Under the pieces are notes generated by a model, which was not told where the DNA came from, searched no databases, and saw nothing but the letters and a program-made list of their open reading frames with translations. A program made the position numbers and the translations under genes. 64,000 nucleotides of DNA from positions 1,646,501 through 1,710,500 of the forward strand of contig NZ_ATTI01000001.1 of NCBI RefSeq assembly GCF_000419605.1, read 5' to 3'. Source of the DNA: Sphingomonas phyllosphaerae 5.2. Its GTDB lineage: Bacteria > Pseudomonadota > Alphaproteobacteria > Sphingomonadales > Sphingomonadaceae. Positions 23,761 through 34,438 of this stretch are shown here, piece after piece (the first letter of the stretch is position 1; the number at the start of each line of letters is the position of its first letter).

Positions 23761-23804
23761 AGCGGCGCAATCTCTATCGGGGTTCCCGGTTGAAGGGGAA
23801 ACTC

Positions 23805-26066
23805 GTGATCTATTTCAGTGCACTACTACTCGGAACGGTATCGATGGGCGGCGCGGCGCCCGGTGCGGATGCGCTCACGGCACCGGTTCCCAACGACGTC
23901 GATGGCAATGAGCAAGTTCGCGAGGGCGACATCCTCGTCGTCGGCAAAAGCTACGGGCGGGAGGTCGGGAAAACCGTTACGCCGCTGAAGGACACGCCGA
24001 ACACCGTCACCGTTATCGATCGCGAACAGATCGAGGGGCAGAACCTGTTCACGCTGGAAGACGCGCTGACCGCCACGACGGGCATCACCGTCAACGGGGT
24101 GGGCAGCGAAGACCCGTCGTTCCTCTCGCGCGGGTTCGCGATCAACAATTATCTGATCGACGGTGTGCCCACGTTGTCGGTAAACTTCCCTTCCGCGGTT
24201 CCGGACCTGTTCTTCTACGACAGGTTGGAGGTGCTGCGCGGCCCTGCCGGACTGTTCAGCGGATCGGGCAACCCCGCGGGCAGCATCAACCTGGTCCGCA
24301 AGCGGCCGCTGGAGAGTGCGCGTTTGCAGGCCAGCGCCGGCTACGGAAGCTATGAGAACGTCCGTCTCGAACTCGATGCCTCGGCGCCGATCGGCAGCAC
24401 GGCCGGGTTGCGCGCCGGCGTGATGGCGCAGGATCAGGACCAGTTCTTCGATACCGCGCATCGCAACCGGCTGGACGCGTTCGTCGTCGGATCGCTGGAG
24501 ATCGGCGCGCGGACGACACTCACCGCGGGGGCGAATTACGACCGGTTCCGACCTGCCGTCCAGTCGGGCCTGCCCGGTTACGCCGGCGGCGCCGATGGCA
24601 GCGACGGCCGCCTGCTCGACGTGCGCCGCTCCACCTATCTGGGTGCGGACTGGAACCGCTTCGACGCGACAACGTGGTCGGGCTTCGTCGAGGTGGCGCA
24701 CCGTGTCTCCGATCGCTGGACGCTGCGTGCCACGGGTCTGTACACCGATGTCGATCGCGTCGACGTGTACAGCTACATCGGCGCGCAGCCGGTGACCGCC
24801 GCCAATCGCGGCTTGACGAACCAGATCGCCTACCGCGGCGATAGCAGGCAGCAGACGCGCTCGGTCGATTTCAACGGCATCGGTAGCTTCCCGCTGTTCG
24901 GACGCGATCAGACGCTGATCCTCGGGGCGGACTATCAGGCGAGTTCCGGCACCTCCTATTTCACACGATTGTCGAACTACGCCCGCATCGACGTGTTCAA
25001 CCCGGTGTCGCCGGCCGAACCGCCGCTTGATCCCTACGGTCGTTTGCCTCCGTATCCGGTGCAGGGCACGCCCGGCATCTGCACGCCGGTGCAGACGCCC
25101 GCGCAATGCGTGACGCAGGTATATGGCGGCTCGACCACGGAGGTGGAGCAATACGGCATCTATGGCCAGATGCGGCTCAGCCCGCTCGCCGGCCTGACGC
25201 TGATCGGTGGCGGTCGGCTGACGTGGTACGACACCGGCAGCCAGACCTTGCTGCCAGCGGTGGGGATGCGGTCCGGCTATACGATCGAGAACCGCTTCAC
25301 CCCCTATGCCGGGATCGTGTGGGACGTGACGCGCGACCTGAACCTGTACGCCAGCTATGCCGACAGCTTCACGCCACAGGCGCAGCCGGTTGGACGGCAG
25401 CGCGCCGACGGCGACGGCATCGAACCGATGATCGGCGAGCAGTTCGAGGCTGGCAGCAAGCTGTCGTTGATGAACGACCGGCTGCTGCTGTCGGCCGCCG
25501 CCTATCAGATCACGCAGACCAACCGCCTGTTCAACGATCCGGTCGACACGACGCTTTACTATCAGCTCGGCAAGGTGCGCTCGCGCGGGATCGAGGCGGA
25601 GCTGAGCGGCGAGATCGTGTCCGGCTGGCGCATCAACGGCGGCTATAGCTACACGCGGACCAAGTTGCTGGCCGACATCAACCCCGCCGTCGAGGGAACG
25701 TCGCTGGTGCCGGTCATCCCGCGGCACATGGCCAAGCTGTTCACCAACTATGCGCCGGCCGGCGGCGCGCTGGCGGGGGCGAGCATCGGCGGCGGTCTGA
25801 CGTTCTTCGGTGAGACGTCTGGCGGCACGCCCTCGTCGGTGGCGGCAAACGGAACGCGGACCGTCTCGACCGTCGTGCGACAGGGCAGCTACGCGGTGCT
25901 CGACCTGCGCGCCGGGTACAAGCTGACCGAGCAACTCGGCCTGTCGATCAACGTCAACAACCTCCTCGACCGTAGTTATTACGCACGCATCTTCTCTACG
26001 GCACGCGGCAATTACTACGGCAGCCCGCGGACCGTCTTCGCCACCCTCCGCTACACGATCGGCTGA
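23805..26066 (+). CDS. TonB-dependent siderophore-type outer-membrane receptor
   Basis: About 753 residues. A signal-like N-terminus is followed by a plug domain (about 50-165) with TVTVIDREQI, SRGFAINNYLIDGVP and LRGPAGLFSGSGNPAGSINLVRKRP, the siderophore-receptor pattern. A 22-strand barrel ends in RTVFATLRYTIG, lacking the usual terminal aromatic residue. GTG 23805 was chosen because AAGGGGA lies 6 bases upstream; a TTG 15 bases earlier is also in frame. It probably imports a metal chelate, and the upstream Fur-like site fits. It lies 166 bp after the efflux pump. Confidence 0.9.
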   Translation: MIYFSALLLGTVSMGGAAPGADALTAPVPNDVDGNEQVREGDILVVGKSYGREVGKTVTPLKDTPNTVTVIDREQIEGQNLFTLEDALTATTGITVNGVGSEDPSFLSRGFAINNYLIDGVPTLSVNFPSAVPDLFFYDRLEVLRGPAGLFSGSGNPAGSINLVRKRPLESARLQASAGYGSYENVRLELDASAPIGSTAGLRAGVMAQDQDQFFDTAHRNRLDAFVVGSLEIGARTTLTAGANYDRFRPAVQSGLPGYAGGADGSDGRLLDVRRSTYLGADWNRFDATTWSGFVEVAHRVSDRWTLRATGLYTDVDRVDVYSYIGAQPVTAANRGLTNQIAYRGDSRQQTRSVDFNGIGSFPLFGRDQTLILGADYQASSGTSYFTRLSNYARIDVFNPVSPAEPPLDPYGRLPPYPVQGTPGICTPVQTPAQCVTQVYGGSTTEVEQYGIYGQMRLSPLAGLTLIGGGRLTWYDTGSQTLLPAVGMRSGYTIENRFTPYAGIVWDVTRDLNLYASYADSFTPQAQPVGRQRADGDGIEPMIGEQFEAGSKLSLMNDRLLLSAAAYQITQTNRLFNDPVDTTLYYQLGKVRSRGIEAELSGEIVSGWRINGGYSYTRTKLLADINPAVEGTSLVPVIPRHMAKLFTNYAPAGGALAGASIGGGLTFFGETSGGTPSSVAANGTRTVSTVVRQGSYAVLDLRAGYKLTEQLGLSINVNNLLDRSYYARIFSTARGNYYGSPRTVFATLRYTIG

Positions 26067-26099
26067 CACAATCATTTCGTTCAAAAAGGGAAATACACC

Positions 26100-26729
26100 A
26101 TGCGCCTTTCATTGTTCGCTGCCACCCTGCTGATGATACCGTCCACTGCGTATGCGCACGAAATCTGGATCGAGCGTGACGGCACCGGCGCAGCGCGGAT
26201 CTATCTGGGCGAGCCCGGCGAGGCACCGCCTCCCGGCGGCGATCCCGAATTCGCCAAGCTGCAGAAGCCCAAGTTGCTGGGTGCCGATACCAGTCCGGTC
26301 ATTCGCCGCGCCGGGTTCCTCGAAGTCGCGGTTCCCCCGGGCGACGTCCGCCTCTCGGATGACGCAGTCTTCGGGCCGTGGGGGCCGAAGGACAAGCGGG
26401 AGGGAGTCATCTATTACGCGCGCGCCGGACGTCAGGAAGCGACGGCGGCGCTTCCGTTCGAGCTGGCACCGGTTGCGACGGGCGCGTCGCGCTTCGTTCT
26501 GACGCGCGATCGCCAGCCGCTTCCGAATACGGCCGTCGCGATGTTCGCGCCGGATCGGACGAAGACGGAACTGCGGACGGACGCATCCGGTGTCGTCGAA
26601 GTGCCGGCCACGCGGGCCGGTCGGTATCTGCTGGTGGCGGCGGCGCGCGACGACCGCTCGGCTACGCTGCCGGGCGGGAAGGTTGACGTGGTGCACCACA
26701 TCACGACCACGTCGTTCGTCTTGCCCTGA
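26100..26729 (+). CDS. DUF4198 periplasmic protein
   Basis: A 209-residue protein with a clean signal peptide (MRLSLFAATLLMIPSTAYA, then HEIWIERDG). The mature chain has the DUF4198 plan: HEIW near the new N-terminus and two beta-rich domains, the second (about 125-200) with LPNTAVAMFAPDRTKTELRTDASGVVEVPATRAGRYLL. This family is related to nickel-uptake periplasmic domains and often sits beside TonB receptors. It follows the receptor by 33 bp, with AAAGGGAAA upstream. It may bind the imported metal; the N-terminal His supports this weakly. Confidence 0.82.
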   Translation: MRLSLFAATLLMIPSTAYAHEIWIERDGTGAARIYLGEPGEAPPPGGDPEFAKLQKPKLLGADTSPVIRRAGFLEVAVPPGDVRLSDDAVFGPWGPKDKREGVIYYARAGRQEATAALPFELAPVATGASRFVLTRDRQPLPNTAVAMFAPDRTKTELRTDASGVVEVPATRAGRYLLVAAARDDRSATLPGGKVDVVHHITTTSFVLP

Positions 26730-26860: not shown

Positions 26861-27940
26861 CTACTTACCCGTCGCTTTCTCGATCAGTTCGATGACCCAA
26901 TCTCCGTCGAGCAGGCGCTCGGCATCGGTTTGTGCGACCTCGATCGCCTGTTCGCCGCGGTAGATCCGCACGATCTGGCTGCCCGCGATATCGCGCGGCA
27001 ACCTGCCGACCTCCTCTGCTTTCACGGCACGTTCCCGCAGCTCGATCCGGCCACCCCGCGTGACGAGGTCGGTGACATAGTCGGCAACATGCGGACCGGT
27101 GGTGCACTGGGCCAGCAGCTGCCCGCCGAAGCTGACCGGATTGACGATGATGCTGGCACCCGCGTCGCGGGCGAGAAGTTCGTTTTCGATGGCGGCGATC
27201 GACACCGCGATGCCGGCGTGGGGTGCGAGCCGGCGGCAGGTAAGGATGATCAACACTGCGGTATCGTCACGACCGGGGCAGACGATCACGTTGCTGGCGC
27301 TCTCGACCTTCGCGATCTCCAGCACCTTGTTGTGGGTTGCATCGCCTTCGACCGTGGTGACGCCCCATTCCTCGGCCAGCCGCAGACGGCTGCTATCCTC
27401 ATCGACGACGACGATCCGTCCGGGAGAATGGCCGCGTTCGAGCAGTTCGCTGACTGCGGCGGACCCCGAGCGACCATAGCCGCAGACGATGACATGATCC
27501 TTCAACCCGTGTCTGGCGAGGCCCATGCGCCACCGCTCCCATCCTTGCCTCAGCATGAAGCTGTAGGCGCTACCCAGAAAGATCAGGAACACGAAGATCC
27601 GGATCGGCGTGACGACGAAGGTATCGAACATGCGCGCCGAGTCGCTGACCGGCACGATGTCGCCATACCCCACCGTCGTCACGGTGATGACGGTGAAATA
27701 GACGATGTCGAGGAAGCTTACCGCGCCATCCGTATTGTCCCGCAGCCCGGCGCGATCGATCCAGTGTCCGCCCAGCGCGATACCGACGAGCACCAGCACC
27801 GCCACGCCGCGGATCGCCAGCGTCGTCAGCGGGCTGAGCCGTCCCGGACGGTAGAAGCGCGGGCGCATCGCGGCCACGGCCGATCGCGCGGCCAGCCGCC
27901 CGGGCGTCAATGCGGGCTGGACCGGTCGACGGTGTCTCAC
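26861..27940 (-). CDS. Kch-like potassium channel with RCK (TrkA-N) domain
   Basis: A 359-residue inner-membrane protein. TM1 is about 42-62, the pore loop has selectivity filter TVGYGD (about 88-93) and TM2 is about 112-130. A cytoplasmic RCK domain (about 147-260) has VIVCGYGRSGSAAVSELLERG as the Rossmann motif and VVVDED ending strand 2. The gene is monocistronic and convergent with the DUF4198 gene. Confidence 0.9.
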   Translation of the reverse strand: MRHRRPVQPALTPGRLAARSAVAAMRPRFYRPGRLSPLTTLAIRGVAVLVLVGIALGGHWIDRAGLRDNTDGAVSFLDIVYFTVITVTTVGYGDIVPVSDSARMFDTFVVTPIRIFVFLIFLGSAYSFMLRQGWERWRMGLARHGLKDHVIVCGYGRSGSAAVSELLERGHSPGRIVVVDEDSSRLRLAEEWGVTTVEGDATHNKVLEIAKVESASNVIVCPGRDDTAVLIILTCRRLAPHAGIAVSIAAIENELLARDAGASIIVNPVSFGGQLLAQCTTGPHVADYVTDLVTRGGRIELRERAVKAEEVGRLPRDIAGSQIVRIYRGEQAIEVAQTDAERLLDGDWVIELIEKATGK

Positions 27941-28207: not shown

Positions 28208-28420
28208 ATGGCGGAGCTGATACTTCACGGGCTATCGATTGCGAGGTCGGCTTTCGTCAAGCCGTTGGCGTCATTGGTCGAGGACAACCTGCATGGAATG
28301 AGCGACGGTGACCGTTATCGCACCGTCGAGATCGTCATGCCTGGCGTCGTCGTTACTGAAGTCGATCCGAAATCCAACGCATGCCGGCGCGGCAGCGACG
28401 CACCCAGGCTACGCGCTTGA
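28208..28420 (+). CDS. Short protein upstream of the glycosyltransferase operon (uncertain)
   Basis: A 70-codon frame with GAGGAG 5 bases before its ATG. It overlaps the first 40 nt of the glycosyltransferase frame. The peptide has a hydrophobic start (MAELILHGLSIARSAF) and an acidic middle; no family is recognised. The ribosome site is good but third-position GC is lower than in neighbouring genes, so it may be a leader peptide, a real small gene or chance. Confidence 0.4.
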   Translation: MAELILHGLSIARSAFVKPLASLVEDNLHGMSDGDRYRTVEIVMPGVVVTEVDPKSNACRRGSDAPRLRA

Positions 28421-29463
28421 GTGCCGACGCGGGAGCATTCCGTTCAGCCGTCGCTATCGCCATCTGTGTTCCCGCCCGCGACGAGGCAGCCCGCCTGCCG
28501 CGGCTGTTCGAGGCCGTTGACCGGCTCCAAGTGCCGGCGGGCGCTTCAGTTTCGCTCTGCTTGCTGCTCGACGGCTGTATCGATGGCAGCGCCGCCATCG
28601 CTGCCGCTTATGCTCGACGGGCGCGACACGGCGTCCATGTCGGGGCGGTCGAGCATTCGGCGGCGAACGCCGGCGTGGCGCGGCATCGCGCGATGCTGCT
28701 GGGTGCGGAAACGCTGAGTGCGCCAGGTGACGTCCTCATGACGACCGACGCCGACAGCTGGCCCAACCCTGCGTGGCTCCACGCGACGGTGGCGGCGCTC
28801 GATCGTGCCGATCTCGTCGCCGGCGACGTGATCCGCAGCGGCGCGGGCGCTCACCCCGATCAGGATCGCATCGAGGCGTATTACGCGCGATTATTCTCGC
28901 TACGGCGCCTCATCGATCCGGTCGAGTGGGAGGCACCGTTTACGCATCACCACACCAGCGGTGCGAACATGGCGATGCGCGCCGACACGTATGCGGCGCT
29001 CGGCGGCTTTCCCGCGCTGGTGAGTGGTGAGGATGCGCGCCTCGTCGACGAAGCCTCGCGGGCGGGTCTGCGCGTCCGGCGCGACGCGGCGAGCGTGGTC
29101 CATACGTCGGGCCGCCGCCGCGGGCGGGCGCTGGGCGGACTTGCGGCGACGCTGCACGCACTCGATCACGATGGCGTCGGCAGCGTTCGCGTCGCGCACC
29201 CGGCCGATCAACTGTGGCAGTATCGCGCGCACGCGCTGGCCCGCCGCGTCTTCCTTCAACGGGATCTGTCATCGCTCTCCGAAGCGATAGGGCTCGACGC
29301 GGATCATCTCGTCGGCGTCGCACGTGATTGTCCGAATGCCGAGGCGTTTGCGATGCGCGTCGTTCCCATCCCGCCGGGTGGCATGCGGCAGGTATCGCTT
29401 GCCGCGGCAGAGACCGTGCTCGCGACGCTGACTGCTTCGCTATCGTCGGCGCAGGCGGCATGA
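28381..29463 (+). CDS. GT2 family glycosyltransferase
   Basis: Up to 360 residues. The GT-A domain (about 22-235) opens with VAIAICVPARDEAARL (nucleotide-sugar binding) and has the metal-binding stretch TTDADSWPNPAWL; GEDARLVDEA is in the acceptor region. No membrane helices are visible, so it is a soluble or peripheral enzyme. ATG 28381 is the only upstream ATG, but the conserved domain begins 20 residues later. It is the first gene of a four-gene operon and overlaps the next gene by 4 nt (ATGA). Sugar and acceptor are unknown. Confidence 0.82.
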   Translation: MPARQRRTQATRLSADAGAFRSAVAIAICVPARDEAARLPRLFEAVDRLQVPAGASVSLCLLLDGCIDGSAAIAAAYARRARHGVHVGAVEHSAANAGVARHRAMLLGAETLSAPGDVLMTTDADSWPNPAWLHATVAALDRADLVAGDVIRSGAGAHPDQDRIEAYYARLFSLRRLIDPVEWEAPFTHHHTSGANMAMRADTYAALGGFPALVSGEDARLVDEASRAGLRVRRDAASVVHTSGRRRGRALGGLAATLHALDHDGVGSVRVAHPADQLWQYRAHALARRVFLQRDLSSLSEAIGLDADHLVGVARDCPNAEAFAMRVVPIPPGGMRQVSLAAAETVLATLTASLSSAQAA

Positions 29464-30434
29464 CCGAACTGCGAAGGCAGCTCGTCGCGCTTGGCGGCGA
29501 GTTGAAGAACCTCGGCGATCCTGTCGACGCCGACGCGCTGCTGGAGCTATTGCGGCTGCTCTATCGTGCCGGCCGACAAGACCTCCCGCTCGGCCGCTTG
29601 TTCGAGGGACATGTCGATGCCGCGCAGATCGTGGCGCGTTATGGCACAGCGATGCGACGCGCGTGGCTGCGCGACGCGGCGATCGGCGGCGCACTGCTCG
29701 GAGTGTGGAACGCCGACTTGCCGGGCGACCCGCTGCGGCTCGTGGATGGGCGGCTGAGCGGCGGGAAGAGCTTCGCGTCGGGCGCCGGGCTGCTCAGCCA
29801 CGCGCTCGTCACGGTGGACATGCCGGCGGGTCGCCAGCTCCTGTTGCTCGATCTCTCCGCAATGCCGCCCGTCATCGATCGCGGCGTCTGGCGCGTGATG
29901 GGGATGCAACGATCGGAAACCCACTCGGTCCGCTGGCACGATGCGATGGTCTCCTCCGACGCTTCGGTGGGGCAGCCCGGTGATTATGTAAGAGAACCCT
30001 GGTTCAGCGGCGGCGCCTTACGTTTCGCGGGCGTTCAGGCCGGCGGCATCGCCCGGCTGGTCGACGGCGTTCGCGACCATCTCGTCGCGGCGGGACGATC
30101 GGCCGATCCGCATCAGGCGGGCCGGTTGGCGCAGCTGTACGCGCTGGCGCAATCGGCCGCCGGCGCGGTACGACGCGCCTCCGTGGGCTGGTTTACCGAC
30201 GAGGAAGCGCGCCTGCCGCTCGTCGCCGCAGCACGCGCCGCCGTCTACGCCGCGGGCGGTGACGCGATCATGCTCGCGCAGGAAGCGGTCGGCGTGCAGT
30301 CGCTGTTCCTGGATCATCCGCTGGCCGCGGCGATCACCGACCTCTCGATGTACCTGCGTCAGCCCGGGCCGGACGCGCAGCGCATGCAGGTGGGCGCGGC
30401 GGTGGCGGCGGGAACGTTGCGGGTGGCGCTGTGA
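29460..30434 (+). CDS. Acyl-CoA dehydrogenase-like protein, shortened and degenerate
   Basis: A 324-residue protein with the flavin-fold plan of acyl-CoA dehydrogenases but about 50 residues shorter than usual. The middle beta-domain (about 75-175) and C-terminal helical domain (about 185-320) are recognisable (ARAAVYAAGGDAIMLAQEAVGVQSLFLDHPLAAAITDL). At the C-terminal position where common members have IYEGTSEIQ, with catalytic Glu, this one reads MYLRQPGPDAQ. The chemistry is thus probably not ordinary acyl-CoA oxidation. It overlaps both neighbours by 4 nt. Confidence 0.75.
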   Translation: MTELRRQLVALGGELKNLGDPVDADALLELLRLLYRAGRQDLPLGRLFEGHVDAAQIVARYGTAMRRAWLRDAAIGGALLGVWNADLPGDPLRLVDGRLSGGKSFASGAGLLSHALVTVDMPAGRQLLLLDLSAMPPVIDRGVWRVMGMQRSETHSVRWHDAMVSSDASVGQPGDYVREPWFSGGALRFAGVQAGGIARLVDGVRDHLVAAGRSADPHQAGRLAQLYALAQSAAGAVRRASVGWFTDEEARLPLVAAARAAVYAAGGDAIMLAQEAVGVQSLFLDHPLAAAITDLSMYLRQPGPDAQRMQVGAAVAAGTLRVAL

Positions 30435-31084
30435 TCGTGCCGCCCGGACGCTTGCGCTCGCTGCTGGTCGTCGCGCCGCACCCCGACGACGAGACGATCG
30501 CCGCACATGCGCTCATGTCGCGGCTGCGGCGGCGCGGCGTCATCGTGCGTGTGCTGGTCGTGAGCGATGGCGCAGCGTCTCATCCGAACAGCGCGCGTTG
30601 GCCGCGCCGCCGGCTCACGCGTGAGCGCCAGCACGAGACGCGACGGGCGATGCGCCGGATCGGAGTGAATGCCGACGCGATCACCTTCCTCGGCCTTCCC
30701 GACGGTCGGTTGGCGGATCATGCGTCCAGCGTGTCCCGTCTGGTTGCGCGGGCAGCACGCGCGCTTCCGGTTCCATCGCTGGTGCTCGCCCCATCAGCCG
30801 ACGACGCCCACCCCGACCATCGTGTCGTGTCCGCCGCGGTGCGGCAACAGGCGGGCGTGCGCTGGTGGAGCTATCCGGTGTGGCCGGCGGGACAACGCCT
30901 GCGTGGCGCCAAACCGCTCGCGCTGACCGCACAGGAACGTCTCGCGAAGCGACATGCGCTTCGTGGTTACCGTACGCAGGCCGGCTGCATCACGGACGAT
31001 CCGAACGGGTTCGCGCTGACAGCGCGCCAGATCCCAGCCTTCTGCGGCCCGCGTGAGCTGTTCGCCGCGGCTGGCGGACGGTGA
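30431..31084 (+). CDS. PIG-L/LmbE family deacetylase
   Basis: A 217-residue zinc-dependent enzyme of the family that removes N-acetyl groups from amino sugars such as GlcNAc conjugates. Metal ligands are in APHPDDE (about 15-21) and DAHPDHRVV (about 119-127). The GTG start at 30431 overlaps the previous stop (GTGA). Next to a glycosyltransferase, it may deacetylate the transferred sugar; that is inference. Confidence 0.88.
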   Translation: MIVPPGRLRSLLVVAPHPDDETIAAHALMSRLRRRGVIVRVLVVSDGAASHPNSARWPRRRLTRERQHETRRAMRRIGVNADAITFLGLPDGRLADHASSVSRLVARAARALPVPSLVLAPSADDAHPDHRVVSAAVRQQAGVRWWSYPVWPAGQRLRGAKPLALTAQERLAKRHALRGYRTQAGCITDDPNGFALTARQIPAFCGPRELFAAAGGR

Positions 31085-31677
31085 GGGCGATCACCCTCGA
31101 CGGGTTCGAGCGGACCTTCGCCGCCGATCCCGATCCGTGGCGGACGTTCGCGAACCGCGACGAAGCGACAAAGCGAACCGCGATTCTCCATGCGATCGGC
31201 GCCGGGCCGCACGGTCGTATCCTCGAACTCGCGGCGGGCAATGGTTCGAACAGTCGTGCATTCGCCGCGCGGACGCTCCGGCTCGACGCCACGGAGGCGA
31301 CCGCGGCGGGCACGCGACTGGTGGCGGCAGCGCTTCCGCCGGGGTCACGGCGCGCGCGGGCGCTGCGGCTGGCGGTGCCGGCGCGCCTGCCGCGATCACG
31401 CTATGACGCGATCGTGGTTGCGGAGCTCCTCTATTATCTCTCCCCACGCGCGATGAAGCGGACTGCCCGCGACCTCGCCCGCGCGTTGCGACCGGGCGGC
31501 ACGCTGGTGCTCGCGCATCATCGCATCGACTTCCACGATTTCGCCCAACATGCCGCGGGCTTGCAGCGCTACTTTCTCGCCCGGACGGGACAGGCCTGGT
31601 CCGTCAGGACGGTCAGGCGCACGGGCCGCTGGGTGGTGCTCGCCTGTGTCCCCCGCCGCTCGCCGAGATCGTCGTAG
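31081..31677 (+). CDS. Class I SAM-dependent methyltransferase (NodS-like)
   Basis: A 198-residue enzyme. The SAM-binding motif is RILELAAGNGSNSRAFAAR (about 45-63), with VVAELLYYLSPRAM at motif III and LRPGGTLVLAHH at motif IV/V. Size and N-terminus (FERTFAADPDPW) resemble NodS-like small methyltransferases, which methylate deacetylated chitooligosaccharide nitrogen. The GTG start overlaps the PIG-L stop (GTGA). It is the last gene of the four-gene operon. Confidence 0.85.
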   Translation: MRAITLDGFERTFAADPDPWRTFANRDEATKRTAILHAIGAGPHGRILELAAGNGSNSRAFAARTLRLDATEATAAGTRLVAAALPPGSRRARALRLAVPARLPRSRYDAIVVAELLYYLSPRAMKRTARDLARALRPGGTLVLAHHRIDFHDFAQHAAGLQRYFLARTGQAWSVRTVRRTGRWVVLACVPRRSPRSS

Positions 31678-31711: not shown

Positions 31712-32587
31712 TTATGAAACCGGCACGCCGCCGGTTACCGCGACGACATTGCCGGACATGTAGCTGCCCTCCGCCGATGCGAGCAGCACATAGGCGGGGG
31801 CAAGCTCACCCGGCTGTCCCGCACGCCCGATCGGCGTATCCTGCCCCAATGTTTCGAGTTCGTGCGGCGACTTGGCGATCGGCTGGATAGGCGTCCAGAT
31901 CGGGCCGGGCGCGACGGCGTTCACGCGAATGCCGTCACTCGACAGAAGGTTGGACAACCCTATTGTAAGGCTCGAAATCGCACCCTTGGTGGCGGCATAG
32001 ACAATCATGTTCTTCCCGGCGACCTTGGCCTGCTCGCTCGTGGTGTTGATGATCGCCGATCCGGGCTTCATGTGCGGCGCCGCCGCCTTGGCCAGACGGA
32101 TCATGGCGAAGACGTTGGCGGCGAAGGCATCCTGCATCTCGTCGTCGTCGATGCTGTCCAGCCCTTCGTTCATCGTCTGCGCCGCGGCATTGTTGACGAG
32201 GACATCCAGCCTGCCGAATTCCGCGACCGTGCGATCGACGATGGCCGCACAATGATCGCGGTCGCGAAGATCGCCTGGCAGCAGAAGGCAGCGCTGTCCC
32301 GCCTTCTCTACCCAGTCCTGTGTTTCCTCGGCATCGGCCTGCTCGTCGGCAAGATAGGATATGGCGACGCTCGCCCCTTCACGGGCGTAGGCGATCGCCA
32401 CCGCGCGGCCGATGCCGGAGTCTCCGCCGGTGATCAGCGCCACCTTTCCGTCGAGCACGCCCTTGCCGACGTAGCTTCCCTCGCCGTGATCGGGCTTGGT
32501 TCGCATGTTCGTCGTCAGCCCGGGTCGCGGCTGCTGCGGCTCGTCGGGAAAGCTCGTCGGCTGGCTGGTGCGTGGATCGTCGGTCAT
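31712..32587 (-). CDS. SDR family oxidoreductase, YghA/general-stress type
   Basis: A 291-residue NAD(P)-dependent enzyme. The Rossmann motif is TGGDSGIGRA (about 55-64), followed by NNAA and the catalytic YAATK (about 200-204). The Pro/Gln-rich N-terminal 40 residues (PQQPRPG) are usual in the YghA/YdaD group. ATG 32587 has AGGAA 6 bases upstream. The frame stays open upstream and would encode a hydrophobic segment, but the ribosome site favours the short form. The substrate is unknown. Confidence 0.88.
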   Translation of the reverse strand: MTDDPRTSQPTSFPDEPQQPRPGLTTNMRTKPDHGEGSYVGKGVLDGKVALITGGDSGIGRAVAIAYAREGASVAISYLADEQADAEETQDWVEKAGQRCLLLPGDLRDRDHCAAIVDRTVAEFGRLDVLVNNAAAQTMNEGLDSIDDDEMQDAFAANVFAMIRLAKAAAPHMKPGSAIINTTSEQAKVAGKNMIVYAATKGAISSLTIGLSNLLSSDGIRVNAVAPGPIWTPIQPIAKSPHELETLGQDTPIGRAGQPGELAPAYVLLASAEGSYMSGNVVAVTGGVPVS

Positions 32588-32854
32588 GTCGCTTCCTGTC
32601 GCTGGATCGAGCAGCAAACGGCCCACAAGCGATAACGTGCCCACCCCCGCCGCCACCGCAAGCACGTATGGCAATGGTCCGCTCGCAGAGAAGAATGAGC
32701 GCGGCGGGCGGCGGGAGGGGCAGGCGTTTCCCGTCGGGTCGACCCTGTCCACGCGTTACTGCACGCCGCCTTGAGGACAGGCGGGCGAGAACGTTGACGC
32801 TGTCCGGAACAGCCTGCACAGCGGGTAGGGGCAAGCGGAAAAGGGGGCAGCTTC

Positions 32855-34438
32855 GTGCATGCGGCGGCGAACTTCGAGCTGATCATCGGCATGTTCCTGG
32901 TGGTGCTGGGGCTCCACTACCTCGCCCGTCGGCTGGCGTTGCCGCCCGCCGCGGCACTGATCGTCGGCGGTTGCGCCGTGGCCTTTGTGCCGGGCGTGCA
33001 GGGGATCGTGATCGACCCCGAGCTGGTCCTCGTCCTGTTTCTGCCACCCCTGTTGATGGATGGCGCATGGTTCACCGCCGTCGCGTCGTTCCGGCGCCAC
33101 ATGGCCGGCATCCTGTCGCTGGCGGTCGGCGCGGTGTTCTTCACCACCGCCGCCGTGGCGATCGTCACGAAACTGCTCATGCCCGGGCTTCCCTGGGCGG
33201 CGTGCGTCGCGCTGGGCGCGATCGTGTCTCCTCCGGACGCAGTATCCGCCCGCGCTGTGTTGCAGCGGGTCAAGCTGCCGCGCCGGCTGACGACGCTGCT
33301 GGAGGGCGAGAGCCTTTTGAATGATGCCGCCGGTCTGGTCCTGTTCCGGTTCGCCGTCGCGGCGGTACTGACCGGCAGCTTCGATCTGGGCGCCGCGACC
33401 GGAACCTTCGTCCTGCTGGTCGTCGGCGGCATCGCCGTCGGCGCGGCGATCGGCGGATTGTGGGTGCTGCTCCTTCGCCGTCTCGGCGACGATACGTTGA
33501 TGATCGCCGCGACGGTGCTCGTCTGCTGGAGCGCCTATATCGCCGGCGAACTGCTGCACGTCTCGGGCGTCATCGCCGTCGTCACCGCGGGCCTGACCTG
33601 CGGCTGGTACCAGCACGTCGTCTTCAACGCGAGCGTGCGCATCCGCGCCATGGCCTTCTGGCAGGTGCTGGTGTTCCTTCTCGAAGCCGCCGTCTTCCTG
33701 CTCATCGGCTTGTCGCTACGCGGTTTGCTGGACCGGGTCGGCGGGATCGGCGTGGTGGTGGACACGATGGCGCAGCCTGTCCTGCTGATCGCCGTGGCCG
33801 TGATCGTGGCGCGCTTCATCTGGGTCTTCGGGGTGGATGCAACGGTGCGCGCCGCACGCGCGGTCGGATGGGCCCGGCAGCAGCCGCTCGGTGCACGTGC
33901 TGCGGTGGTGATCAGCTGGGCGGGGATGCGCGGCGTGGTCACGCTGGCGGTCGCGCTCTCGCTTCCGGAAACGATGCCGGCGCGGGATCTGATGCTCGTC
34001 GCCGCCTTTGTCGTGATCCTCGTCACGGTGCTGGTGCAGGGCACGTCGCTCGGGGCCGTCATCCGCTGGGCAAAGCCGCCGGAAGATGCCGGCGCGGGAC
34101 CGCCGCTCGATCTTCAAGCTGCTGAGACGATGATGTTCCAGGCGCAATTGGTCGCCGTGGAGCGCGCGGCTGTCGATGCCCATGGCAACGTCATCCATCC
34201 GCAACTGCTCCGCCGCTATACGACCCGTGCCACCGCGGCAGATGCCTTCGACGGCACAAATGAGGAGCGCAACGCCGCGATCGCCAGCCATTTCGACGTG
34301 ATCATCGCGGCCGTCACGGCCGGTCGGGCGGAATTGGTCCGGCTGCACCGCGCCGGGCGTATCGATGATGAGACCCTACACGACCTCGAACATGATCTGG
34401 ACCTGGAGGAGCTTGCTGCCGAGGCAGCGAAGGGTTGA
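32855..34438 (+). CDS. CPA1 family Na+/H+ antiporter
   Basis: A 527-residue inner-membrane exchanger with about 12 helices across residues 5-400. Motifs GAIVSPPDAVSA (about 124-135) and EGESLLNDAAGLV (about 149-161), with the ion-binding acidic residues, are typical. The C-terminal 120 residues are cytoplasmic, helical and charged, probably regulatory. The GTG start is supported by AAGGGGG 7 bases upstream; no in-frame ATG is near. Confidence 0.92.
   Translation: MHAAANFELIIGMFLVVLGLHYLARRLALPPAAALIVGGCAVAFVPGVQGIVIDPELVLVLFLPPLLMDGAWFTAVASFRRHMAGILSLAVGAVFFTTAAVAIVTKLLMPGLPWAACVALGAIVSPPDAVSARAVLQRVKLPRRLTTLLEGESLLNDAAGLVLFRFAVAAVLTGSFDLGAATGTFVLLVVGGIAVGAAIGGLWVLLLRRLGDDTLMIAATVLVCWSAYIAGELLHVSGVIAVVTAGLTCGWYQHVVFNASVRIRAMAFWQVLVFLLEAAVFLLIGLSLRGLLDRVGGIGVVVDTMAQPVLLIAVAVIVARFIWVFGVDATVRAARAVGWARQQPLGARAAVVISWAGMRGVVTLAVALSLPETMPARDLMLVAAFVVILVTVLVQGTSLGAVIRWAKPPEDAGAGPPLDLQAAETMMFQAQLVAVERAAVDAHGNVIHPQLLRRYTTRATAADAFDGTNEERNAAIASHFDVIIAAVTAGRAELVRLHRAGRIDDETLHDLEHDLDLEELAAEAAKG

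What the first reader, a model, noticed from the sequence alone, without database searches (positions are those of the whole stretch)
28381..31677. Four-gene operon with 4-nt overlaps: glycosyltransferase, odd acyl-CoA dehydrogenase, PIG-L deacetylase, NodS-like methyltransferase
Every junction overlaps by exactly 4 nt (ATGA, GTGA, GTGA), which points to tightly coupled translation and proteins that act together. The logic glycosylate, oxidise, N-deacetylate, methylate resembles steps of Nod-factor or glycolipid tailoring, yet there is no chitin synthase, acyl carrier protein or exporter, and the dehydrogenase is shortened and lacks the usual C-terminal Glu. I know of no described product for this set. 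It may make a small glycosylated or aminosugar compound, or modify an envelope lipid.
Basis: partly seen in the sequence, partly recalled or inferred. Interest (0 to 1): 0.8.

Follow-up and report, generated by a model that had tools for sequence, protein, structure and literature searches.

The report
Conserved aminosugar-tailoring stress gene cassette
Four overlapping bacterial genes, found side by side in three bacterial phyla (and with one part swapped in a fourth), are predicted to build an unknown sugar compound by attaching an amino sugar, likely stripping its acetyl group, methylating it and oxidising it, and relatives sit near stress-survival genes more often than control stretches do.

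Summary
In detail: GT2, a 324-aa acyl-CoA-dehydrogenase-fold protein, PIG-L and a NodS-like methyltransferase overlap by 4 nt at all three junctions. The set is not private to this strain. The second gene has a relative in 32 of 398 sampled genomes of the phylum and 102 of 201 of the genus, own genome included. All four genes lie together in 101 of 120 loci examined, including Nostoc and Deinococcus gobiensis plasmids; 0 of 40 control windows hold any. Gene order varies, linkage holds. In Rubrobacter a CE4 polysaccharide deacetylase stands where PIG-L would. Near-identical whole cassettes occur in differently named Sphingomonas species. The "odd dehydrogenase" is nearest by profile to DszC-type flavin monooxygenases; NodS is the methyltransferase's nearest characterised relative. 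I infer a cassette that transfers, N-deacetylates, N-methylates and oxidises an aminosugar, perhaps for stress tolerance. Stress-gene neighbours support the last point only moderately (9 of 30 loci against 0 of 40 controls, partly circular); an EcfG promoter test was negative. Product and acceptor are unknown. My paper searches found no description of the set.

The parts
28381..29463 (+). GT2 glycosyltransferase (GT-A fold), 360 aa; true start may lie downstream
   Evidence: PF00535 37.6 bits; D68, D123-x-D125, E217-D218 conserved 26/26; model pLDDT 91.0, residues 1-19 under 50
29460..30434 (+). acyl-CoA-dehydrogenase-fold flavoprotein, 324 aa, nearest by profile to DszC-type flavin monooxygenases
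   Evidence: profile best PDB match DszC 3.6e-24, 7.5e-19; model pLDDT 94.7, fold matches
30431..31084 (+). PIG-L (LmbE) family de-N-acetylase, the only PIG-L found in this genome
   Evidence: PF02585 101.1 bits; H17, D19, D20, H127, H130 conserved 26/26; genome search
31081..31677 (+). SAM-dependent methyltransferase, NodS-like
   Evidence: PF05401 25.2 bits, cut-off 24; NodS best PDB match 1.6e-8, and 5.6e-29 by profile, second to an uncharacterised methyltransferase
29460..29463 (+). ATGA start/stop overlap, GT and flavoprotein
   Evidence: sequence; 4-nt overlap in 78 of 106 loci scored
30431..30434 (+). GTGA start/stop overlap, flavoprotein and PIG-L
   Evidence: sequence; 4-nt overlap in 99 of 109 loci scored
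31081..31084 (+). GTGA start/stop overlap, PIG-L and methyltransferase
   Evidence: sequence; 4-nt overlap in 98 of 108 loci scored

Best explanation
The four genes form one conserved gene cassette that likely makes a modified aminosugar glycoside: the GT2 enzyme is predicted to transfer an N-acetylhexosamine to an unknown acceptor, the PIG-L protein would remove the acetyl group, the NodS-like enzyme would N-methylate the freed amine, and the acyl-CoA-dehydrogenase-fold protein likely acts as a flavin-dependent oxygenase on the product. Shown: the gene set, its overlaps, its linkage across phyla, near-identical whole cassettes in differently named species, and conservation of the residues that mark the GT2 and PIG-L active sites (their roles recalled). 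Inferred from homology: each reaction and the order of steps. Inferred from genome context only: a role in general stress or drying tolerance. In most Sphingomonas loci seen, the four genes stand without the linked glycosyltransferase families found elsewhere; in Salinisphaera, some Sphingomonas, other Alphaproteobacteria and one locus of another class, further glycosyltransferases and sometimes a sucrose-phosphate-synthase/phosphatase protein lie nearby, so the acceptor may differ between lineages or be supplied elsewhere in the genome.
For: Linkage: all four genes within 4.5 kb of the flavoprotein in 101 of 120 loci: 74 of 80 named loci, 20 of 30 unnamed phylum-wide loci, 6 of 9 plasmid loci, and the window. 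Among the 30 unnamed loci L111-L140 the methyltransferase is there in 28, PIG-L in 24, GT in 22 (read). 0 of 40 control windows held any of the four. Order changes (GT upstream in Sphingomonas and Salinisphaera, downstream in Acinetobacter and most loci from other classes of the phylum, on the opposite strand in Bradyrhizobium, Komagataeibacter, D. gobiensis and Nostoc) while linkage stays. Four-gene patristic distances correlate at r 0.93-0.97 (largest of 300 permutations 0.26), and in three genomes with two cassette copies the copies diverge together in all four genes. Whole cassettes 99.4-100% identical over 3156 bases in five loci titled S. echinoides, S. lacusdianchii, S. jejuensis, S. 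panni and S. abaci (L078, L079, L080, L083, L084). Function: NodS nearest characterised methyltransferase, then phosphoethanolamine N-methyltransferases; CE4 deacetylase beside the flavoprotein in Rubrobacter, with no PIG-L found within 4.5 kb; GT best matches include TarS, chondroitin polymerase, heparosan synthase; flavoprotein best profile match DszC, with MsuC and nitrososynthase-type KijD3 also listed. Stress context: Ku, LigD, KatE, DUF892, OtsA or OtsB in 9 of 30 loci against 0 of 40 controls, p 2.2e-4; Ku in 21 of 32 genomes with the flavoprotein against 68 of 366 without; cassette between katE and otsAB on an Acinetobacter ursingii plasmid.
Confidence: 0.5

Rival explanations
1. The second protein is a dehydrogenase or oxidase rather than an oxygenase: it removes hydrogens from an acyl or amine group (as ColB1 does on carrier-bound cysteine), and the cassette makes an unsaturated or imine-containing glycoconjugate.
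For: ColB1 and acyl-CoA dehydrogenases score as high as DszC in fold comparison; PF00441 matches 13 of 40 members. The window protein has no His in its C-terminal segment, where XiaF places one by the flavin hydroperoxide.
Against: The canonical catalytic Glu position is Pro302 in the window protein and Pro, Ala, Ser, Thr or Cys in the other 19 members (position set by ungapped extension of the alignment). Sequence profiles rank DszC first, and a W-x3-GM motif (W144, G148, M149) is shared with DszC and TdsC but not with isobutyryl-CoA dehydrogenase in the alignments.
Confidence: 0.27
2. The cassette tailors an envelope component (glycolipid, lipopolysaccharide or exopolysaccharide) rather than making a small soluble molecule.
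For: GT best structural matches include teichoic-acid and polysaccharide glycosyltransferases; extra glycosyltransferases lie beside the cassette in several lineages; a UDP-galactopyranose mutase lies nearby in D. gobiensis.
Against: No fifth gene family is a constant neighbour: the largest after the four is a catalase in 27 of 111 loci, so no exporter or acyltransferase travels with the set. Sucrose- or trehalose-forming genes, which make soluble sugars, are neighbours in some lineages.
Confidence: 0.35
3. The cassette makes a low-molecular-weight thiol or conjugate by the mycothiol/bacillithiol logic (GT, then PIG-L deacetylase).
For: PIG-L resembles BshB1 (46.5 bits) and has the PIG-L-type hypothetical protein TT1542 as its best PDB match.
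Against: BshB1, BshB2, Mca and MshB cut-offs are not met; no fifth family, hence no cysteine ligase, is a constant neighbour; the GT is a GT2, whereas MshA and BshA are GT4 (recalled).
Confidence: 0.06
4. The genes are only neighbours by hitch-hiking in plasmid-borne stress islands and act in separate pathways.
For: Six of nine plasmid loci fetched carry all four genes, and near-identical blocks occur in several species.
Against: Conserved translational overlaps, linkage kept through rearranged gene order and across phyla, correlated divergence of all four genes.
Confidence: 0.03

Closest known systems
Nod-factor core enzymes NodC-NodB-NodS
   Same: GT2 plus N-deacetylase plus NodS-like methyltransferase; NodS is the nearest characterised relative of the methyltransferase; a CE4 deacetylase stands beside the flavoprotein in Rubrobacter
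   Different: PIG-L in the other lineages where a deacetylase was found; NodS equivalog score 31.6 against 300; no NodA match in the own genome, with an uninformative control; an added flavoprotein; found mostly in non-rhizobia, in four phyla
DszC / TdsC / MsuC group D flavin monooxygenases and sugar nitrososynthases (KijD3, DnmZ)
   Same: DszC is the best profile match of the second protein, MsuC and KijD3 also match; same fold for DszC, TdsC, KijD3 and DnmZ; KijD3 is called a sugar N-oxygenase in PMC5481743 (passages); that DnmZ acts on an aminosugar is recalled
   Different: 14-21% identity in the fold matches listed for these enzymes, shorter N terminus, no adjacent flavin reductase in the window, activity untested; the His that XiaF places by the flavin hydroperoxide is lacking in the C-terminal segment of the window protein, where R300-Q301 are invariant, although members from other classes have a His there (RQ-x-H)
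Mycothiol / bacillithiol biosynthesis (MshA-MshB, BshA-BshB)
   Same: GT followed by PIG-L de-N-acetylation
   Different: GT2 not GT4 (the latter recalled), no constant fifth gene such as a cysteine ligase, cut-offs not met

Membership tests
PIG-L / LmbE de-N-acetylases | PF02585 over its curated cut-off | tested here: met
   101.1 bits against 28.2
PIG-L / LmbE de-N-acetylases | metal-site and base residues (HPDD...HPDH; roles recalled) | tested here: met
   H17, D19, D20, H127, H130 conserved in 26 of 26
BshB / MshB | NCBIfam equivalog cut-off | tested here: not met
   46.5 of 182.5 and 21.5 of 224.35 bits
GT2 glycosyltransferases | PF00535 over cut-off and DxD motif | tested here: met
   37.6 against 23.3 bits; D123-x-D125 in 26 of 26
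GT2 transferring N-acetylhexosamine | donor specificity | not testable with these tools
   HexNAc transferases are prominent but not exclusive among best matches
NodS | Pfam NodS cut-off | tested here: met
   25.2 against 24 bits, matching residues 104-160 only
NodS | NCBIfam NodS equivalog cut-off | tested here: not met
   31.6 against 300 bits
Nod-factor pathway | NodA acyltransferase in the genome | tested here: inconclusive
   0 of 1 genome, and 0 of 14 control genomes rang
acyl-CoA dehydrogenase | fold | tested here: met
acyl-CoA dehydrogenase | C-terminal catalytic Glu | tested here: not met
   position reads Pro302, by ungapped extension of the alignment to 1rx0; no Glu there in 20 of 20 members; the Glu's role is recalled
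group D flavin monooxygenase | closest relatives by sequence profile | tested here: met
   DszC 3.6e-24 and 7.5e-19, ahead of isobutyryl-CoA dehydrogenase 2.6e-15 and 1.8e-13
group D flavin monooxygenase | PF08028 C-terminal domain | tested here: inconclusive
   4 of 40 members; PF00441 in 13 of 40; neither in the window protein
group D flavin monooxygenase | use of reduced flavin and O2 | not testable with these tools
   a Flavin_Reduct gene lies elsewhere in the genome
EcfG general stress regulon | GGAAC-N16-17-CGTT promoter upstream | tested here: not met
   2 of 76 loci, none upstream of the window operon; the two matches in the window lie far away and equal chance

The most novel reading that the evidence does not exclude
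The cassette is a portable pathway for an undescribed N-methylated, N-oxygenated aminosugar protectant (a hydroxylamine- or nitrone-like sugar) that radiation- and drying-tolerant bacteria of four phyla (Sphingomonas, Deinococcus, Rubrobacter, Nostoc, Acinetobacter and others) have exchanged alongside catalase, Ku/LigD and trehalose or sucrose genes.
Probability: 0.12. Interest if true: 0.9.

Novelty: new variant of a known kind. Interest (0 to 1): 0.62.

Why it matters
A four-gene set kept together across three phyla, with a different deacetylase in a fourth, and found as near-identical blocks in several species probably makes something useful, yet I found no description of it in the searches made. 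If the predicted chemistry holds, it would be a Nod-factor-like aminosugar tailoring route outside symbiosis and would give a concrete metabolite to test for a part in bacterial survival of drying and oxidative stress. Many proteins annotated as acyl-CoA dehydrogenases may be misnamed: a member whose closest named relatives are Pseudomonas had 5291 matches at E 0.001, though some of these may be true dehydrogenases.

Tried and rejected
EcfG (general stress sigma) promoter upstream of the operon: 2 of 76 loci (L059, L060, with nearly the same motif); 5 of 81 loci with under 300 bases of upstream sequence were left out, and in 18 of the 81 the search was anchored on the flavoprotein ORF because no GT ORF had been picked; rejected as a general rule. 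CE4 deacetylase as a general PIG-L substitute: no other match in 111 sequences, L031-L140 and a stretch of the window, so it is a single case. An ORF between flavoprotein and methyltransferase in L119 and one beside the flavoprotein in L120 gave no Pfam match. The Deinococcus flavoprotein carries about 400 extra N-terminal residues; no Pfam or convincing PDB relative, a 25% match to a glycosyl-hydrolase-1-like protein of L045; a glycosidase role is only a guess. Profile search with all 20 family members found no conserved stretch to scan with, so the named-genome scan used six alphaproteobacterial members, and its 80 loci (of 416 that encode a relative) are mostly Sphingomonas and Salinisphaera. 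Literature searches for the set gave nothing relevant in their listings (open-access papers only). Four Acinetobacter desiccation or stress papers were searched for the gene names by passage only: none has PIG-L, LmbE or acyl-CoA dehydrogenase in its main text. DszC active-site roles were looked for and not found for S163 or W205, so I claim none. On checking, I lowered the novel case from 0.13 to 0.12 and my estimate of a stress role to about half, because the one independent marker pair is not significant alone.
Full report
What is there. Reading 28381-31677 on the + strand gives a GT2 glycosyltransferase, a 324-residue acyl-CoA-dehydrogenase-fold protein, a PIG-L deacetylase and a SAM methyltransferase, overlapping as ATGA, GTGA and GTGA. 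Pfam and NCBIfam confirm three of the four; the second protein matches no Pfam family on its own. Its family profile and AlphaFold model (mean pLDDT 94.7) show the acyl-CoA dehydrogenase fold. The GT model has pLDDT 91.0 with residues 1-19 under 50, so its true start may be downstream. The own genome has one copy of the second gene and one PIG-L gene, this one.

It is a cassette, not a local accident. In 398 genomes sampled from the phylum, 32 have a relative of the second protein, the own genome included; in the genus, 102 of 201. I took stretches of up to 20 kb round 30 of the 32, 80 named loci and nine plasmid loci. With the window this makes 120 loci; 101 hold all four genes within 4.5 kb of the flavoprotein: 74 of 80 named, 20 of 30 unnamed, 6 of 9 plasmid loci, and the window. 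Forty control windows from 24 of the genomes that have the second gene hold none of the four. All three 4-nt overlaps occur in 75 of the 120 loci. The GT moves from upstream (Sphingomonas, Salinisphaera) to downstream (Acinetobacter, most loci from other classes of the phylum) to the opposite strand (Bradyrhizobium, Komagataeibacter, Nostoc, D. gobiensis) while staying linked. Such linkage through rearrangement is stronger evidence for joint function than the overlaps.

Spread and transfer. A plasmid search found matches to the flavoprotein in 72 records, 35 of them covering at least 80% of it. The Nostoc plasmid locus holds all four genes; D. gobiensis has flavoprotein, PIG-L, methyltransferase and a GT2; D. 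radiodurans has flavoprotein, PIG-L and, one gene further on, the methyltransferase, with no GT found near. A Methylobacterium plasmid has the flavoprotein with none of the others found. In Rubrobacter indicoceani a CE4 polysaccharide deacetylase precedes the flavoprotein and no PIG-L was found near; a NodS-like methyltransferase, a pyridine-nucleotide-type FAD oxidoreductase and a GT2 follow. In Sphingomonas, five loci of differently named species carry cassettes 99.4-100% identical over 3156 bases (L078, L079, L080, L083, L084), beside a KatE catalase in four of them (all but L079). In three genomes with two copies all four genes diverge together, and across 101 loci the four distance matrices correlate at r 0.93-0.97. 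Species descent also raises such correlations; the within-genome copies do not share that weakness.

Model. GT2 adds an N-acetylhexosamine to an unknown acceptor; PIG-L removes the acetyl group; the NodS-like enzyme methylates the amine; the flavoprotein oxidises the product. All four steps are inferred. The deacetylase swap in Rubrobacter is the best single hint that the substrate is an N-acetylated sugar, and it is one case only (one search found no other CE4 in the 111 sequences searched).

Stress context. Markers Ku, LigD, KatE, DUF892, OtsA or OtsB lie in 9 of 30 phylum-wide loci and 0 of 40 controls (Fisher p 2.2e-4). I picked Ku, LigD, KatE and DUF892 after seeing them in such loci, so part of this is circular. 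OtsA/OtsB were taken from the Acinetobacter plasmid and found in 3 of 30 against 0 of 40, which alone is not significant (p 0.07); the SDR beside the window's cassette shows no enrichment (3 of 30 against 3 of 40). Ku is present in 21 of 32 genomes with the flavoprotein and 68 of 366 without (odds ratio 8.4), uncorrected for descent or genome size. On the A. ursingii plasmid the cassette lies between katE and otsAB; katE matters for drying tolerance in A. baumannii (PMC13232832, abstract start in the listing and passages). Salinisphaera, some Sphingomonas, other Alphaproteobacteria and one locus of another class add GT4, GT2, GT28 or sucrose-phosphate-synthase/phosphatase genes. Against a stress role, the EcfG promoter was found in only 2 of 76 loci tested.

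Verdict. A real, widespread and apparently undescribed biosynthetic cassette. That it is a functional unit I hold at over 95%; the specific aminosugar chemistry at about half; a stress role at about half.

Noticed in passing
window 31712-32752 (-), 26861-27940 (-), 32855-34438 (+): Neighbours of the cassette: an SDR oxidoreductase resembling general stress proteins (name recalled), a TrkA-domain ion channel and a Na/H exchanger.
   Followed up: partly
L141:6546-8885 and L142:6582-8930: Deinococcus flavoproteins are about 780 aa with an N-terminal region of about 400 aa lacking Pfam matches; that of D. radiodurans (L141) is weakly like a glycosyl hydrolase family 1 protein.
   Followed up: partly
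L078, L079, L080, L083, L084: Cassettes 99.4-100% identical over 3156 bases in loci of five differently named Sphingomonas species, four of them with a KatE catalase gene next to it.
   Followed up: partly
L112, L147, L144, L146: A Crp/Fnr-family regulator lies near the cassette, or near the flavoprotein, in several unrelated lineages; such genes were also found in 1 of 40 control windows.
   Followed up: no
window 23790-26729 (+): TonB-dependent receptor followed by a small DUF4198-like protein (below its cut-off), a possible metal-uptake pair.
   Followed up: no
L144:9496-10698 (+): Rubrobacter cassette contains a pyridine-nucleotide FAD oxidoreductase that might supply reduced flavin to the flavoprotein.
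   Followed up: no
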